Positions 51,284 to 59,974 of a stretch of 64,000 nt of DNA are shown here, one piece after another. Numbering within the stretch: the stretch's first letter is position 1; every line of letters starts with the position of its first letter. The notes beneath the pieces are model-generated. The model worked only from the letters and a program-made list of their open reading frames with translations, was not told the origin of the DNA and searched no databases. The DNA lies in assembly GCA_018702955.1 (NCBI GenBank), contig JABJEK010000038.1, positions 62,001 through 126,000 on the forward strand, written 5' to 3'. Position numbers and translations under genes: made by a program. This DNA is from Rhodospirillaceae bacterium (GTDB taxonomy: Bacteria > Pseudomonadota > Alphaproteobacteria > UBA6615).

Positions 51284-52351
51284 TCAGTTGGTCTTGGCGA
51301 TCAGCGCCAACGCGTCCTTAACGATCGACGCGTCGGTCAGATCACCATAGGCCACCGGAGACTTCGCAGGGTTGATCCCGGCCTTGCCCTTGGTGCGTTT
51401 GCCAACGCCGGTCTGAATGGCGATAGCCTTCTCGATGCGCTTCTGATCGAGCCCCGCCGCATTTCGGGGCCAGTAATCGATGTTGGTGAAGAGCTCGAGC
51501 GCCTTGATGGCGTCCCCGGGGCTGCGGCCCGTCGGTGCAGCGATCTTGGCGATCTCGTCCCACTTGCTCTTGTCGTAGAGCAGGTTCATCGCCTCGATAT
51601 GCGCTGCGGCCATCCGTACGAGCGCATCGCGTCGTTCCGCGACCACCTTGTCGTTCGATACGATCACAGCATAGTGGCTGCCCGGCGAGGTTTCCTCGAC
51701 ACGGGCCACGATGGTGACCTTCTTGCCGCTTTCCCGCTCGATGACCGGAATGTCATCGCTGTGGAGCACGCCCAGCTTGAGCTGGCCCGACACCATGGCG
51801 GCGCCGACATTTGTGGAAAGGTTGACCGTCTGGACGTCCTTGTCCGGGATCAGCTTGCACGGGCGGACCATGTTGGCGAGCTGGATCCAGCGCGCACCAC
51901 GCGGGCTGTCGACACCAACGGCCTGGCCTTTGACGGCCTCGCAGCTGTTGATCGCCGGGTCCATGGAACCCAGCATCCAGTCGTTGATCTCCATGCCGCT
52001 GATAACCTTGAGCGGCACACCGGCGTTGGACACCATCACCGCGACGGGCGGGGTCGGCGACATGGACACGTCCACATTGCCCGACACAACGGCGCGTGCG
52101 GCACCCACGCCCGAATTCATCGGGCGGAGTTCGACATCGACGCCATACTTGTCATAGAGGCCCATATCCTTCGCGACATAGGTGAAGACGCTGCCGAAGA
52201 TCGGCGGCACGCCCGGCAGTGCGAGGACCAGCTTCTCCTTGTCCTGCGCCACGGCTTCGCCCGACGATATCGCCGCCGAAGCCAGCATGCCGACCGCAAT
52301 AGCGGTCGCCGCCAGCGGCTTGGTTAGTTTGATTTGTGACAGAAGTGACAT
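51284..52351 (-). CDS. ABC transporter substrate-binding protein (SsuA/THI5-like)
   Basis: This 355-residue periplasmic protein has a signal peptide (PLAATAIAVGMLASAAISSGEAVA). The NMT1/THI5-like binding fold follows, with GKEKLVLAL-like strand PGVPPIFGSVFTYVAKDMGLYDKYGVDVELRPM and SGNVDVSMSPTPPVAVM. Relatives bind sulfonates, taurine, nitrate, or pyrimidine/thiamin precursors; the ligand here is unknown. The ATG at 52351 has AGGGAGAAAACGG upstream. It sits between the ATPase gene and the permease genes, matching a complete importer. Confidence 0.88.
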   Translation of the reverse strand: MSLLSQIKLTKPLAATAIAVGMLASAAISSGEAVAQDKEKLVLALPGVPPIFGSVFTYVAKDMGLYDKYGVDVELRPMNSGVGAARAVVSGNVDVSMSPTPPVAVMVSNAGVPLKVISGMEINDWMLGSMDPAINSCEAVKGQAVGVDSPRGARWIQLANMVRPCKLIPDKDVQTVNLSTNVGAAMVSGQLKLGVLHSDDIPVIERESGKKVTIVARVEETSPGSHYAVIVSNDKVVAERRDALVRMAAAHIEAMNLLYDKSKWDEIAKIAAPTGRSPGDAIKALELFTNIDYWPRNAAGLDQKRIEKAIAIQTGVGKRTKGKAGINPAKSPVAYGDLTDASIVKDALALIAKTN

Positions 52352-52407
52352 CCGTTTTCTCCCTGTTGCAATTGTATCCAAACGGTTGGGAAGCTCTTCG
52401 TGGCTTC

Positions 52408-53208
52408 TCAGTTCAATTCGTATTCGGCGGCACGCACCTCATCCATGAGGGTGGTCCAGACATGCTCGCGAATTTCGGTAAAGCGCGGATGGGCGAGCGT
52501 CGACCGGTCGCGCGGCGCGGGCAGATCCACGTCGATGACTTCGAAGACGCTACTCGGCCGCCCCTTCAAGACCACAACCCTGTCGCCCATCAGAACCGCC
52601 TCTTCGATCGAATGGGTGACGAAGACCATGGTCATCGGACGCATGCGCCAGATTTTCAGCAGCTCGAATTGCAGGATTTCTCGGGTCTGGGCATCCACCG
52701 CCGCAAACGGCTCGTCCATCAGCAGCACACTCGGTTCCATGGTGAGTGCGCGCGCCAGGCCACAGCGCTGCTGCATCCCGCCGGAGAGCTGATAGGGATA
52801 GGCGTCCTCGAAACCCTTCAGGCCCACCAGGTCGACGTAATAGGGGACCTTCTCGGCGATCTCTGCGCGCGGGGCCCCCGCCAGCTTCAGTCCATAACCG
52901 ACGTTCTGGCGAACGGTCTTCCACGGGAACAGGCCGAAATGCTGAAACACCATCGACACGCCTTCGCGCGGCTGAGTGATCACGTCGCCTTCTATGCGAA
53001 TTTCGCCTTCGTTGACCGGCAACAATCCGTCGATGCATCGAAGCAGGGTCGTCTTGCCGCAACCCGACGGGCCCACGATCGTAACGATCTCGCGCTCGCG
53101 AAACTCCAGATTGATGTCCTTGAATACCTGAAGATCACCATAGCGCTTGCCCACGCCATTGATCTCGATACGGGACGACTGACCGTCCGCTTCAGCTTCT
53201 GCGCTCAT
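52408..53208 (-). CDS. ABC transporter ATP-binding protein (SsuB/TauB type)
   Basis: This 266-residue ATPase has Walker A GPSGCGKTTLLR, Q-loop VFQHFGLFPW, signature LSGGMQQRCGLARAL, Walker B VLLMDEPFAAVD, and switch His in TMVFVTHSIEEAVLMGD. The set matches nitrate/sulfonate/taurine-type importer ATPases (NrtD/TauB). It leads the minus-strand operon ATPase, binding protein, two permeases. There is a 57-base space to the binding protein gene. The 124-base region upstream, shared with the convergent hydratase end, should contain the operon's promoter. Confidence 0.93.
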   Translation of the reverse strand: MSAEAEADGQSSRIEINGVGKRYGDLQVFKDINLEFREREIVTIVGPSGCGKTTLLRCIDGLLPVNEGEIRIEGDVITQPREGVSMVFQHFGLFPWKTVRQNVGYGLKLAGAPRAEIAEKVPYYVDLVGLKGFEDAYPYQLSGGMQQRCGLARALTMEPSVLLMDEPFAAVDAQTREILQFELLKIWRMRPMTMVFVTHSIEEAVLMGDRVVVLKGRPSSVFEVIDVDLPAPRDRSTLAHPRFTEIREHVWTTLMDEVRAAEYELN

Positions 53209-54256: not shown

Positions 54257-55186
54257 ATGTCATTGCGCGTTGGCGTTTGCGGTCTCGGAATCATGGGCGG
54301 CGCATTTGCCGCCAACCTGGTCAAGGCCGGTTTCCAGGTCACCGGTTTCGACCCGGTGAAGTCCAAGGTGAACGTGCTGGTGAAGGCCGGCGGCAAGGCC
54401 GGCAAGAGCCCGGCCGACGTGGCCCGCAAGTCCGACGTGGTCATCACCTCCCTCACCTCCCCGGCCATTCTCGATGCGGTGGTCAACGGAAAGGGCGGCA
54501 TGGCGTCGGGCGCGCACAAGGGCATGATCCTGATCGAGACATCGACCCTCGACATCGCCGACAAGGAAGAAATCCGCGACACGCTCGCCAAGAAGGGCGC
54601 GACCATGGTGGACTGCCCCGTTTCCGGCGCCGGGCAGCAGGCCGCGTCGGGCCAAATCACGACCATGGCGAGCGGCACGAAGAAGGATTTCAACGCGGTC
54701 CGTGAAATCCTCGAGGGTTTCTCGATGATCCAGTACTACGTTGGTCCGTTCGGCAACGGCATGCGGCTGAAACTGCTGATCAACATGCTGATCAGCGTGC
54801 ATGGTGCGGCCTTCGCCGAGGCGATCACCCTGGCGCGCCTGTCGGGCATCGACCTGGACGTGTTTGCCGAGGCCCTGACGCAATCGGCCGGCAACTCCCG
54901 GGTCATCGAGTATCGCGGCCCGCTGATGCTCGACGACGATTACAACAACCCGAAAACCAAGACCGCCGATCTGACCGTGATGATCAAGGACAACAATCTG
55001 ATCGAGCAGTATGCGAAGGACTTCAACGCCCCGGTGCCCGTGTTCCAGGCCAGCATGTTCTCGACCTACGCCGCCCTCGCCCAGGGGTTCGGGCAGGAGG
55101 ACCCCGGCGTGGTCACCCGCGTCTACGAACAGATGGCCGGAATCCCGCGCAAGAAACGCGCGCCGGCCAAGCGTAAGAAAAAATAA
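54257..55186 (+). CDS. NAD(P)-dependent HIBADH-like oxidoreductase (tandem copy 1)
   Basis: This 309-residue beta-hydroxyacid dehydrogenase has GVCGLGIMGGAFAANL at the start, DCPVSGAGQQAASGQITTM, and GNGMRLKLLINMLISVHGAAFAEA. In the last of these an Arg/Lys-Leu-Lys stretch carries the conserved Lys. A Lys-rich tail (KKRAPAKRKKK) extends the C-terminus and is not shared by its downstream paralogue. The ATG at 54257 is preceded by GGGGAGAAG. Its TAA overlaps the ATG of the next gene by one base (TAATG), so the pair is translationally coupled and may form a heteromer or act in sequence. Confidence 0.89.
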   Translation: MSLRVGVCGLGIMGGAFAANLVKAGFQVTGFDPVKSKVNVLVKAGGKAGKSPADVARKSDVVITSLTSPAILDAVVNGKGGMASGAHKGMILIETSTLDIADKEEIRDTLAKKGATMVDCPVSGAGQQAASGQITTMASGTKKDFNAVREILEGFSMIQYYVGPFGNGMRLKLLINMLISVHGAAFAEAITLARLSGIDLDVFAEALTQSAGNSRVIEYRGPLMLDDDYNNPKTKTADLTVMIKDNNLIEQYAKDFNAPVPVFQASMFSTYAALAQGFGQEDPGVVTRVYEQMAGIPRKKRAPAKRKKK

Positions 55187-56082
55187 TGGCGCTGACAGCC
55201 GGCGTCATCGGCCTCGGAAATATCGGCGGCGGCGTGGCGAGAAACCTCGCCGCTGCCGGACACCACGTCATCGGTTATGACCTCGACCCGGAGCGGATCA
55301 CCGACGCGGGTGCGGAAGCGGGTGTGGATGCGGCAGATGTTGCGGCGCGGACCGATCTGGTCGTGCTGGCCGTCGCTACCATGACGGCCTGGCGCGCCAC
55401 GCTCGCAGCGATCTCCGCCAGCGGCCGGCGCGGGCTTGTGGTCGTCGACCTGTGCACCTTCCCGATCGCCGAAAAGGAAGGCGCCCATGAGGAACTCGCG
55501 CGGGCGGGCATAGACCTCCTCGATTGTCCGGTCAGCGGCGCGCGTCCCCAGGCACAGGCCGGTGATTTGGCCATGCTCGTCAGCGGCAGCAAGGACGCGT
55601 TGGACCGGGTGCGACCCGCGCTCGAAAGTTTCTGCCGCAGCGTGCTCCATGTCGGCGGGTTCGGTGAATCCGCGAAGATCAAATACATCCTCAACCTGAT
55701 CATCTCGATCCACAACATGGCCTGCGCCGAGGCCTTCCTGCTGGCCCGCAAGGCCGGCGTCGACCTCCAGCTCATGACCGACGCCGTCATGGAAAGTGCG
55801 GCCTACTCCAAGATCTTCGAGGTTCGGGCGGAGAAGTGGATCACCGGCGACTATGACGACCCGACGGCCGAGCTGGCGATCCAGCTCAAGGACAAGGATG
55901 TGATCCGCGACTTCGCCGCTGCACTGGACTGCCCGACACCCATGTTCGATGCGACCATGCCCTACTACATCGCCGCAGCGTCCCAGGGCCGCCAGCAACA
56001 GGACGCGGCCTCAATTCTGGCGGTGCTGGAGCATATGGCGGGGATACCAAGGGACAAGCCGCCGGGTCCCGACCGCGGCTAA
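55186..56082 (+). CDS. NAD(P)-dependent HIBADH-like oxidoreductase (tandem copy 2)
   Basis: This 298-residue protein is a paralogue of the 54257 gene. It has GVIGLGNIGGGVARNLAAAG, DCPVSGARPQAQAGDLAML, and FGESAKIKYILNLIISIHNMACAEAF with the conserved Lys. The substrate is unknown, and the two paralogues differ in the substrate stretch (GAGQQAASG versus GARPQAQAG). It overlaps the gene upstream by one base. Its stop overlaps the methyltransferase-like gene on the other strand by 4 bases. Confidence 0.89.
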   Translation: MALTAGVIGLGNIGGGVARNLAAAGHHVIGYDLDPERITDAGAEAGVDAADVAARTDLVVLAVATMTAWRATLAAISASGRRGLVVVDLCTFPIAEKEGAHEELARAGIDLLDCPVSGARPQAQAGDLAMLVSGSKDALDRVRPALESFCRSVLHVGGFGESAKIKYILNLIISIHNMACAEAFLLARKAGVDLQLMTDAVMESAAYSKIFEVRAEKWITGDYDDPTAELAIQLKDKDVIRDFAAALDCPTPMFDATMPYYIAAASQGRQQQDAASILAVLEHMAGIPRDKPPGPDRG

Positions 56083-57404: not shown

Positions 57405-57551
57405 GATCTTCTCCCGCAGGTTTGTGTTGGGGCAAAACTAGCGTCGGCTGGAGGCACGGACAATCGCCCACCCACTCACAACATCGTCAGAGGCATTTTG
57501 ACCGCCAGCCGCGACGGCCCTATGATTTGCGCCTGTCATAAGGGGAAATTC

Positions 57552-58244
57552 ATGACCGTCAAATATCATCTGATCAGCTCGTTCACCTGACCATGGGTCC
57601 AGCGCGCCGTGATCCTTTTGCGCGCCAAAGACGTCGAGTTCGATGTCACCTACATCAATCTCCGTGAGAAGCCCGACTGGTTCCTCGAAATCTCGCCCCA
57701 TGGCAAGGTTCCGGTCCTGAAGGTCGGCGACGAAATCCTGTTCGAATCCAACGCCATCGCCGAGTTCCTCGACGAGATGGTCGCGCCGCGGCTACACCCC
57801 GAAGACCCGATCGCGCGCGCCAAGAACCGTGCCTGGACAGACTTTACGGCGACCTTTGCCGGCGCCCTGAGCAAGATCCATTATGCCAAGACCCGCGAAG
57901 ACATGGAGGCGGCGGTCGAGGCTGCACCCGAGGTTCTCCTGAAGGTCGAGAAGGCCCTCGCCGGACGTGGCAACACCGGGCCGTTCTTCAACGGGCCTGA
58001 TCTGTCGCTGGTGGACGCGGCCTATGCCCCCTTCCTGCAGCGTTACCTGCTGATCGACGACGGCCTGAAGAACGATGTGCTGAAGGACTTCCCTCTGATC
58101 CGGGCCTGGGCCGAAACGCTGATGGCCGACGAACGGGTGACCGGCGCCGTGCCGGACAATTTCGAGGCGGAGTTCATCGGCAATCTGCACCGGCGCGATT
58201 TGTATGCGCGGGAGTTCTTCGAGAACACGGTCGCCGCCGAATAA
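57552..58244 (+). CDS. Omega-like glutathione S-transferase with UGA at the catalytic cysteine codon (probable selenoprotein)
   Basis: The reading frame starts at ATG 57552 (AGGGGA upstream) and reads MTVKYHLISSFT, then TGA (57588-57590), then PWVQRAVILLRAKDVEFDVT. If the TGA is read as selenocysteine (Sec13) the protein is 230 residues, the normal GST length. It has cis-Pro54 in GKVPVL, the glutathione-gamma-Glu contact E65-S66 in FESNAI, and a helical C-terminal domain (~90-215). Cys-Pro-(W/F) here is the omega-class catalytic motif, so Sec replaces the nucleophile. A SECIS-like hairpin follows. Without readthrough, the frame restarts only at a GTG (57609), cutting away the active site. The two genes downstream follow by 1 and 4 bases. 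Confidence 0.78.
57602..57625 (+). promoter_or_regulatory. Candidate bacterial SECIS hairpin for the GST
   Basis: gcgcgc (57602-57607) pairs perfectly with gcgcgc (57620-57625), giving a 6-bp stem with a 12-base loop, cgtgatcctttt. The loop starts 18 bases after the UGA and has G as its second base. This matches the bacterial SECIS rules I recall (apical loop 16-37 bases from UGA, G among the first two loop bases, short GC stem). It lies inside the coding sequence, as bacterial SECIS elements do. Confidence 0.6.
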
Positions 58245-58245
58245 G

Positions 58246-58941
58246 ATGGCGAACGATCCGAGCAACCCGGGTGGCTACCGGCCCGACGACCCGCGATACG
58301 GGCTGTCGGGTCAGGCGCTGCAGGATTATTACCTCGCGCAACCGCCGCAGTGGTTCATTCGCAGCTACTACAAGCCCGACAGCCTGCATCTGCGCGAAGC
58401 GGCGATGGACGTGCATCTGGCCCACCTCCGCGCCCACGCCGACAAGATCCACTTCGCCGGGCCGCTGCTGAGCGACGACGGCGAAACGCCGATCGGCACC
58501 ATGGCGATCATCGAACTACCGGACAGGGCCGCCGCCGAGGCCTATGTGGCGGGCGACGGTTTCGCCAAGGCCGGCATGCTCGAGGCACCGGAAATCATCC
58601 GCTTCGTCAGTTCGAAGCGCCTCAAACAGGGCGACCGCGAACCCGACCCGGATCAGCAGCTGTTCGTTTGTGAGTGTATCGACGGGCCCGACGCGAAGGC
58701 GCTCCGTGCTCAATCCGCAGCCGACCATCACGACTATCAGGGCTCACTCATCGAGCGGTATTTCGCGCACGGCCCGCTGCGCAACGACGATGGCACTGGC
58801 CTGCTCGGGAGCCTGTTCCTCATCGAAGTCGCCGACCGGAATACTGCGGAACTCCTCGTCGCCAACGAACCCATGACCGCCGCCGGCGTGTTCTCCGAAG
58901 TACGCATCAACCGCTGGCGGTTTGGGAAGTCGATTTCATAG
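58246..58941 (+). CDS. Protein with two YCII-related domains
   Basis: This 231-residue protein contains two YciI-like (ferredoxin-fold) domains. Domain 1 (~33-120) has SLHLREAAMDVHLAHLRAHADKIHFAGPLLSDDGETPIGTM, and domain 2 (~140-225) has LIERYFAHGPLRNDDGTGLLGSLFLIEV. Both share a pattern H..HL..H or DYQ..L...FAHGPL..DDG...G. In single-domain YciI relatives this His-Asp pair is proposed as catalytic. The duplication may give a pseudo-dimer. ATG 58246 follows the GST stop by one base, so the two are translationally coupled; a role on the same electrophile is possible. Confidence 0.8.
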   Translation: MANDPSNPGGYRPDDPRYGLSGQALQDYYLAQPPQWFIRSYYKPDSLHLREAAMDVHLAHLRAHADKIHFAGPLLSDDGETPIGTMAIIELPDRAAAEAYVAGDGFAKAGMLEAPEIIRFVSSKRLKQGDREPDPDQQLFVCECIDGPDAKALRAQSAADHHDYQGSLIERYFAHGPLRNDDGTGLLGSLFLIEVADRNTAELLVANEPMTAAGVFSEVRINRWRFGKSIS

Positions 58942-58945
58942 CTTG

Positions 58946-59974
58946 ATGACCAAACGCATCGCCATCATGGGTTCCGGCGCCAACGGCAGCGCCATCGGGG
59001 CCGACCTCGTTCGTGCCGGGCTCGACGTGAAACTCATCGACCAGTGGCCGGCCCATGTGGAGGCCATGCGGGCGGATGGCGTCACCATCAAAATGCCCGA
59101 CGAGACGATCCACGCCGACGTCGATGCCTATCATCTGTGTGACATCGCGACCTTCACCGAGCCCTTCGACGTCGTGCTGATGTTGTTCAAGGCCTACGAC
59201 ACGCGCTGGGCCGCCGAGCTGATCAAGCCCCATCTGGCCGAGGACGGGCTGCTCGTAGGCGTTCAGAACGGCATGACCTACGAAACCATCTCCGATGTTG
59301 TCGGGCCCGAACGCACCCTGCCCTGCGTCATTGAACTGGCGGGCGAACTGGAAGGTCCGGGCGTCGTGATCCGCCGTTCGCCCCCGGACAACGGCTCCTG
59401 GTTTGCGCTCGGCAGCATCGACCCCGCGACGGACGGGCGCGAGGAGGAGATCGCGGAATTGCTCCGCCATGTCGGCGCGGTCGAGATCGTCCCCGACATC
59501 CTGTCGGCGAAATGGATGAAGCTGGTCATGAATTCCATGACCCTGGCGACCTCCGCGCTGCTGGGCTCGGGACTGAACGAATCCTACGAGATCCCCGGCA
59601 TGCGCGACCTGATGCTGAAGGCCGGGGCCGAGGCTCTCGCTGCCGGTGCTGAACGCGGCCACAAGCCGGTGCCGATCGTGGGCCTGCAACAATCCGAAAT
59701 CGAAAACTCGAACCATCTGCTCGAACTGCTGGTCGAGAAGCTCGAATCCTTCACCCTGCCCGACACGCCCACGACTATTCTGCAAGACCACAGCAAGGGC
59801 CGGATGAGCGAGACCGACGGCATCAACGGGATCGTGGCGGAAACGCTCATCGCCGCCGGGCAAGTGGCCCCCGCCAGCCAGGCGATCGTCGAGGTGACAC
59901 GCCGGATTCACGCCGGCGAGATCGAGACCGACGTGTCCAACATGGATTTGATTCGCGAGCTGGTCGCGATCTGA
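58946..59974 (+). CDS. Ketopantoate reductase (PanE)-family protein
   Basis: This 342-residue protein has an N-terminal Rossmann domain (AIMGSGANGSAIGADLVRAGLDVKLIDQWP). The conserved VGVQNGMTYETI region follows, then the C-terminal Lys in SAKWMKLVMNSMTLATSALLGSG, and a Glu/Asn segment NSNHLLELLV. PanE reduces 2-dehydropantoate with NADPH for pantothenate/CoA synthesis; many relatives have other 2-oxo or 3-oxo acid substrates, and residues beyond the core differ here, so I call only the family. It starts 4 bases after the double-YCII gene and ends the operon with the GST. Confidence 0.86.
   Translation: MTKRIAIMGSGANGSAIGADLVRAGLDVKLIDQWPAHVEAMRADGVTIKMPDETIHADVDAYHLCDIATFTEPFDVVLMLFKAYDTRWAAELIKPHLAEDGLLVGVQNGMTYETISDVVGPERTLPCVIELAGELEGPGVVIRRSPPDNGSWFALGSIDPATDGREEEIAELLRHVGAVEIVPDILSAKWMKLVMNSMTLATSALLGSGLNESYEIPGMRDLMLKAGAEALAAGAERGHKPVPIVGLQQSEIENSNHLLELLVEKLESFTLPDTPTTILQDHSKGRMSETDGINGIVAETLIAAGQVAPASQAIVEVTRRIHAGEIETDVSNMDLIRELVAI

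What the first reader, a model, noticed from the sequence alone, without database searches (positions are those of the whole stretch)
57552..58244. In-frame UGA at the catalytic residue of a GST: probable selenoprotein
The DNA shows a GST N-terminus with a good ribosome binding site, then TGA where omega-type GSTs have the nucleophilic Cys (SFT-UGA-PWVQR), then 217 intact codons with cis-Pro54 and E65-S66. Apart from the UGA the frame is clean, and two genes downstream are packed by 1 and 4 bases, arguing against a decaying pseudogene. I recall that marine metagenome selenoproteome surveys list GST-like selenoproteins, but none with this gene neighbourhood known to me. The inference is that Sec13 replaces Cys. 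A single nonsense mutation or sequencing error is the rival explanation.
Basis: partly seen in the sequence, partly recalled or inferred. Interest (0 to 1): 0.88.

Follow-up and report, generated by a model that had tools for sequence, protein, structure and literature searches.

The report
Selenocysteine-containing omega-like glutathione transferase gene
This marine bacterium very probably reads a mid-gene "stop" codon as the rare amino acid selenocysteine at the active site of a glutathione transferase; enzymes of this kind have been listed as selenoproteins since 2005, so it is a well-supported new member of a known kind.

Summary
ATG 57552, UGA 57588-57590 and TAA 58242-58244 form one clean GST frame. 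The genome (a MAG, 93% complete) carries selA, selB, selD and tRNA-Sec on one contig. The UGA is not a private mutation: 42 non-redundant homologues down to 58% identity keep TGA at this codon. Every other aligned homologue has TGC or TGT there. Just downstream is a SECIS-like stem-loop (57602-57625). Its codons are frozen at synonymous sites only in the UGA genes: Val20 is GTG in 40/42 UGA genes against 1/8 of Cys genes. The published bSECIS model is met by 32/42 UGA genes, 1/11 Cys genes and 10-15/42 synonymously recoded controls. UGA genes sit in selA-positive genomes (11/12 in an even class sample, p = 3e-9; 24/26 in a second set). All 8 genomes of the Cys group nested among the UGA genes lack selA. 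A second conserved UGA gene (GrdB/PrdB-like) lies beside the sel genes. The fold is a GST, closest to the omega class, with Sec13 at the Cys32-equivalent position. "GST" has been a listed bacterial selenoprotein family since 2005, so this is a new member of a known kind. Sec incorporation and substrate remain experimentally unproven.

The parts
57540..57546 (+). Probable ribosome-binding site AAGGGGA, 5 bases before the ATG
   Evidence: Read from sequence
57552..58244 (+). Selenoprotein GST gene, 230 aa with Sec13 read through
   Evidence: Translation with TGA=U; Pfam GST_N/GST_C; 42 UGA and 20 Cys non-redundant homologues; AlphaFold model pLDDT 93 with GST fold
57588..57590 (+). In-frame UGA read as selenocysteine (Sec13), aligned with the catalytic Cys of Cys-homologues
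   Evidence: TGA or TGC/TGT at this codon in all aligned homologues, nothing else
57602..57625 (+). SECIS-like stem-loop: GCGCGC (57602-57607), loop CGUGAUCCUUUU (57608-57619), GCGCGC (57620-57625)
   Evidence: Six pairs intact in 37/42 UGA genes; mean 5.79 pairs against a synonymous-recoding null of 4.42 +/- 0.17; GC to AU double change in 2 sequences; meets the published bSECIS criteria; codons 17-20 and 24 synonymously conserved
58246..58941 (+). Downstream gene 1: double YCII-domain protein (1 base gap), probably co-transcribed
   Evidence: PF03795 E 7e-27; synteny kept only within the window's family
58946..59974 (+). Downstream gene 2: ApbA/PanE-like ketopantoate-reductase-family protein (4 base gap)
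   Evidence: PF02558 E 2e-25; synteny in nearest relatives

Best explanation
The gene encodes a selenoprotein: a cytosolic, omega-like glutathione transferase whose nucleophilic Cys13 is replaced by selenocysteine. Inferred decoding: Sec-tRNA-Sec (made by SelA with selenophosphate from SelD) is delivered by SelB, which binds the stem-loop 14-37 nt after the first base of the UGA, so UGA13 is read as Sec. Inferred chemistry: Sec13, at the N-cap of helix 1 of the thioredoxin-fold domain beside cis-Pro54 and the Glu65-Ser66 glutathione site, attacks an oxidised, glutathionylated or electrophilic substrate. The resulting Se-S glutathione intermediate is resolved by GSH, as omega-class GSTs do with Cys32 (thiol-transferase or reductase type chemistry). 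Shown here: frame, homology, machinery, SECIS-like constraint, Sec/Cys exchange and its match with selA. Inferred: actual Sec insertion, reaction and substrate.
For: Machinery on contig C82: tRNA-Sec 71 bits, anticodon UCA; selA 592 bits; selB 467 bits; selD 290 bits, all above curated cut-offs. Codon 13 is TGA in 42 and Cys in 20 non-redundant homologues, never anything else. SECIS: Val20 GTG in 40/42 UGA genes vs 1/8 Cys genes (p = 3e-6); codons 18-20 homozygosity 0.82-0.91 vs 0.29-0.38 expected; bSECIS model met by 32/42 UGA genes vs 1/11 Cys genes vs 10-15/42 recoded controls. Phyletic match: 11/12 UGA genomes have selA against 56/385 overall, p = 2.7e-9; 24/26 UGA genomes vs 0/8 nested-Cys genomes. 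Fold nearest to GSTO1. A second conserved UGA gene in the same genome.
Against: No proteomic or 75Se evidence. RNAfold z-score of the stem-loop in the window alone is modest (-1.21), so the SECIS case rests on comparison. The 6-bp stem is GC-rich and varies little, so true double-sided covariation is limited to 2 sequences. Three UGA genomes lack a selA hit (G034, 77% complete; those of L064 and L086), plausibly missing from MAGs. Ten of 42 UGA genes fail the strict bSECIS rule.
Confidence: 0.96

Rival explanations
1. A single nonsense mutation or sequencing/assembly error turned a Cys codon into TGA, making a pseudogene or an artefact.
For: A single base separates TGA from TGC/TGT, and the window's genome is a fragmented, incomplete assembly.
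Against: The same TGA is in 42 non-redundant homologues from many assemblies and studies, down to 58% identity, with the frame intact after it and third-position-biased change.
Confidence: 0.01
2. The true protein starts downstream (GTG 57609) and the upstream part is not translated, so UGA is not decoded.
For: A mechanical ORF of 211 aa starts at GTG 57609. GTG at that codon is almost invariant in UGA genes, which a start codon would also explain.
Against: The residues before the UGA are highly conserved (KYHLISSxT) in UGA and Cys genes alike. The alternative start would drop strand 1, the catalytic residue and half of helix 1 of the predicted fold. GTC also occurs at that codon, and GTA. The good ribosome-binding site precedes ATG 57552. 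UGA tracks selA.
Confidence: 0.02
3. UGA is decoded, but by near-cognate suppression or as another amino acid rather than Sec.
For: Not excluded by sequence alone.
Against: Cys is the only alternative residue, SECIS-like constraint is confined to UGA genes, and UGA tracks selA. UGA is used as an ordinary stop elsewhere in this genome, for example at the end of the GrdB-like frame.
Confidence: 0.01

Closest known systems
GST selenoprotein family of the Sargasso Sea and GOS surveys (COG0625/PF13409; PMC1088965, PMC2398784; listed in reviews PMC9312934 and PMC13188914)
   Same: GST-fold protein with in-frame UGA aligned to Cys in homologues, bacterial SECIS downstream, found in marine bacteria
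   Different: The survey sequences could not be fetched here, so identity of the subfamily is likely but untested; the passages on GST found in those papers give no neighbourhood or Sec/Cys versus sel-loss analysis
Omega-class GST (human GSTO1, PDB 1eem; also thiol-dependent reductase 1, PDB 4ags)
   Same: Catalytic Cys-Pro motif at the N-cap of helix 1, cis-Pro, Glu-Ser, two-domain fold; best profile and fold matches
   Different: Sec instead of Cys; no N-terminal omega extension (12 residues before Sec against 31 before Cys32); about 24% identity
Cys-containing homologues in alphaproteobacteria (L058, L059, L061, L076, L078, L079, L083, L084)
   Same: 56-64% identical proteins with the same motif CPWVQR
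   Different: TGC/TGT at codon 13, SECIS signature mostly lost, genomes without selA
Bacterial SECIS consensus (PMC13188914, Fig. 2)
   Same: Upper stem, G in first two loop positions, 16-37 nt spacing, MFE at or below -7.5
   Different: The loop reaches the 3-9 nt size only through a weak G-U closing pair in the window

Membership tests
Bacterial selenoproteins | In-frame UGA aligned with Cys of homologues | tested here: met
Bacterial selenoproteins | selA, selB, selC, selD in the genome | tested here: met
Bacterial selenoproteins | SECIS-like stem-loop just downstream of UGA fitting the bSECIS model | tested here: met
   the window's own sequence meets the model
Bacterial selenoproteins | Selenium physically present at the UGA position | not testable with these tools
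   Needs 75Se labelling or mass spectrometry
GST selenoprotein family (COG0625) of marine surveys | GST-domain protein with Sec at the catalytic position | tested here: met
GST selenoprotein family (COG0625) of marine surveys | Same subfamily as the deposited survey sequences | not testable with these tools
   PPR62222.1 and MEK9676863.1 (named in the reviews) could not be fetched
Omega-class GST | Catalytic Cys (here Sec) followed by Pro at the start of helix 1, cis-Pro, Glu-Ser | tested here: met
Omega-class GST | N-terminal omega extension | tested here: not met
   Only 12 residues precede Sec13; GSTO1 aligns from its residue 26
Omega-class GST | Thiol-transferase / dehydroascorbate reductase activity | not testable with these tools
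   Needs assay

The most novel reading that the evidence does not exclude
This clade of GSTs is a natural Sec/Cys switch. The enzyme arose from Cys-GSTs inside a selenium-using lineage, acquired a SECIS and Sec, and reverted to Cys with loss of the SECIS where the sel genes were lost. The Sec form would then carry out a specific reduction for which Cys is only a fallback, a dependence not described for GSTs in the papers found here.
Probability: 0.55. Interest if true: 0.5.

Novelty: new member of a known kind. Interest (0 to 1): 0.42.

Why it matters
Selenoprotein GSTs appear as a line in survey tables, and the 2026 review states that the functions of such predicted selenoproteins remain largely uncharacterised (PMC13188914). 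Here the family gets whole-genome context, a UGA-specific SECIS signature and a set of closely related Sec and Cys enzymes in sel+ and sel- genomes. That makes it directly testable what selenium adds to a GST. Mechanical ORF calling cuts off the active site of this gene, so such genes are probably under-reported.

Tried and rejected
An NCBIfam number guessed from memory for the sel search was a wrong family. First DNA alignments mixed strands and were discarded, then redone. Rfam gave no SECIS match here. Neighbourhood as a clue to function was rejected, since the YCII/ApbA/HIBADH synteny holds only within the window's family and other UGA genes stand in varied contexts. The AU test did not reject Sec genes as one clade (p = 0.143), so reversion to Cys is favoured by the tree but not proven. 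A scan of the window for other TGA read-through frames gave seven weak candidates, judged from their flanking residues only and not followed up. Literature searches found no characterised Sec-GST.

Full report
Observation. The sequence is as described: AAGGGGA ribosome-binding site, ATG 57552, TGA 57588-57590 as codon 13, 217 further codons, TAA 58242-58244. The next two genes start 1 and 4 bases downstream: a double YCII-domain protein and an ApbA/PanE-family reductase. Pfam places GST N- and C-terminal domains over the read-through product. A mechanical ORF finder starts at GTG 57609 and drops the active site.

Machinery. The window lies in an assembly of 3.37 Mb, 145 contigs, about 93% complete. 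On one contig, C82, it has tRNA-Sec (71 bits, anticodon UCA), selA (592 bits), selB (467 bits) and selD fused to an oxidoreductase domain (290 bits). The same contig carries a second UGA gene, a GrdB/PrdB-like protein with a UPQC motif. Its TGA is kept in all full-length relatives found. The genome therefore has everything needed to use Sec.

Conservation of the UGA. Homologues were gathered from whole genomes and GTDB contigs, and the codon aligned with position 13 was read for each. It is TGA in every homologue from 95% down to about 64% identity. Between 64% and 56% it is TGA or TGC/TGT, and below that only Cys codons occur. No other codon was seen. After removal of duplicates there are 42 Sec and 20 Cys sequences. 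Against the 95%-identical neighbour the changes at codon positions 1/2/3 are 6/5/49. A private nonsense mutation or a sequencing error is excluded.

SECIS. From 57602 to 57625 the mRNA can form GCGCGC-CGUGAUCCUUUU-GCGCGC. In the 42 Sec genes, codons 18, 19 and 20 have homozygosity 0.82-0.91 where codon usage predicts 0.29-0.38, while Val16, four codons before Val20, is fully mixed. Val20 is GTG in 40/42 Sec genes but in 1 of 8 Val-bearing Cys relatives (p = 3e-6). The six stem pairs average 5.79 in Sec genes against 4.42 +/- 0.17 after synonymous recoding. Two sequences have a compensatory GC to AU exchange. The published bSECIS criteria (3-9 nt loop, G in the first two loop positions, 16-37 nt spacing, MFE at or below -7.5; PMC13188914) are met by 32/42 Sec genes including the window, 1/11 Cys relatives, and 10-15 of 42 recoded controls. 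The single-sequence fold is not remarkable (z -1.21), so the comparative evidence carries the claim.

Match with selenium genes. In an even sample of 385 genomes of the class, 12 carry the UGA gene, and 11 of these have selA against 56/385 overall (p = 2.7e-9). The exception, G034, is 77% complete, and its best tRNA-Sec hit is below the cut-off. In a second set, 24/26 UGA genomes have selA, while all 8 genomes of the nested Cys group have none. By hand, from those counts, the chance of that split is about 2.5e-6. The 8 are mostly one clade, so they represent one or two events rather than eight. Two more distant Cys genomes (L088, L090) do have selA. The tree needs two changes of state once long branches are removed: most simply Cys to Sec once, then back to Cys with loss of the SECIS signature in a lineage without sel genes. 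Sec monophyly is not rejected (AU p = 0.143), so the reversion is favoured but not proven.

Fold and function. AlphaFold gives a confident two-domain GST model (pLDDT 93, pTM 0.90). Residue 13 lies immediately before helix 1 (14-25). Foldseek and profile search rank omega-class GSTO1 first or near first, with tau-class plant GSTs, DHAR and SspA behind. The catalytic Cys of GSTO1 aligns with Sec13. From established omega-class chemistry, the inferred role is a GSH-dependent thiol-transferase or reductase reaction with a Se-S glutathione intermediate. The substrate is unknown. The neighbouring catabolic-type genes are not conserved beyond the window's family and are a weak guide.

Relation to the known. 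GST was among the 15 new selenoprotein families of the Sargasso Sea survey (4 sequences, PMC1088965). It was found again in the GOS survey (12 sequences, PMC2398784) and is listed in the 2022 and 2026 reviews. Whether those deposited proteins belong to this very subfamily could not be tested here, but COG0625/PF13409 and the marine origin agree. The finding is a new, well-supported member of a known kind. What is added is genomic context, the UGA-specific synonymous signature and the Sec/Cys-versus-selA match.

Noticed in passing
L095:1301-2530 (G000:C82:38900-40129): A second probable selenoprotein beside the sel genes: a GrdB/PrdB-like protein with in-frame UGA at codon 154 (VPVUPQC), the TGA kept in all full-length relatives found.
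   Followed up: partly
L095:498-1190 (G000:C82): A Cys-containing GST paralogue (about 36% identical, SSSTCPFAQR) lies next to selD and the GrdB-like gene; comparable GSTs lie within about 20 kb of selA in several relatives.
   Followed up: no
L095:2600-4825 (G000:C82): selD is the C-terminal part of a 741-aa fusion with a pyridine-nucleotide-disulfide oxidoreductase domain (TIGR03169 plus selD).
   Followed up: no
window 54257-56082: Two tandem, diverged 3-hydroxyisobutyrate-dehydrogenase-family genes, conserved as a pair near the GST in relatives.
   Followed up: no
L058, L059, L061, L076, L078, L079, L083, L084: Cys-GST lineage lacking selA: natural comparison set for what Sec adds.
   Followed up: partly
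window 51284-53208 (-): Substrate-binding protein and ATPase of a nitrate/sulfonate/taurine-type ABC transporter by appearance, next to an enoyl-CoA-hydratase-like gene; named from sequence only, not searched.
   Followed up: no
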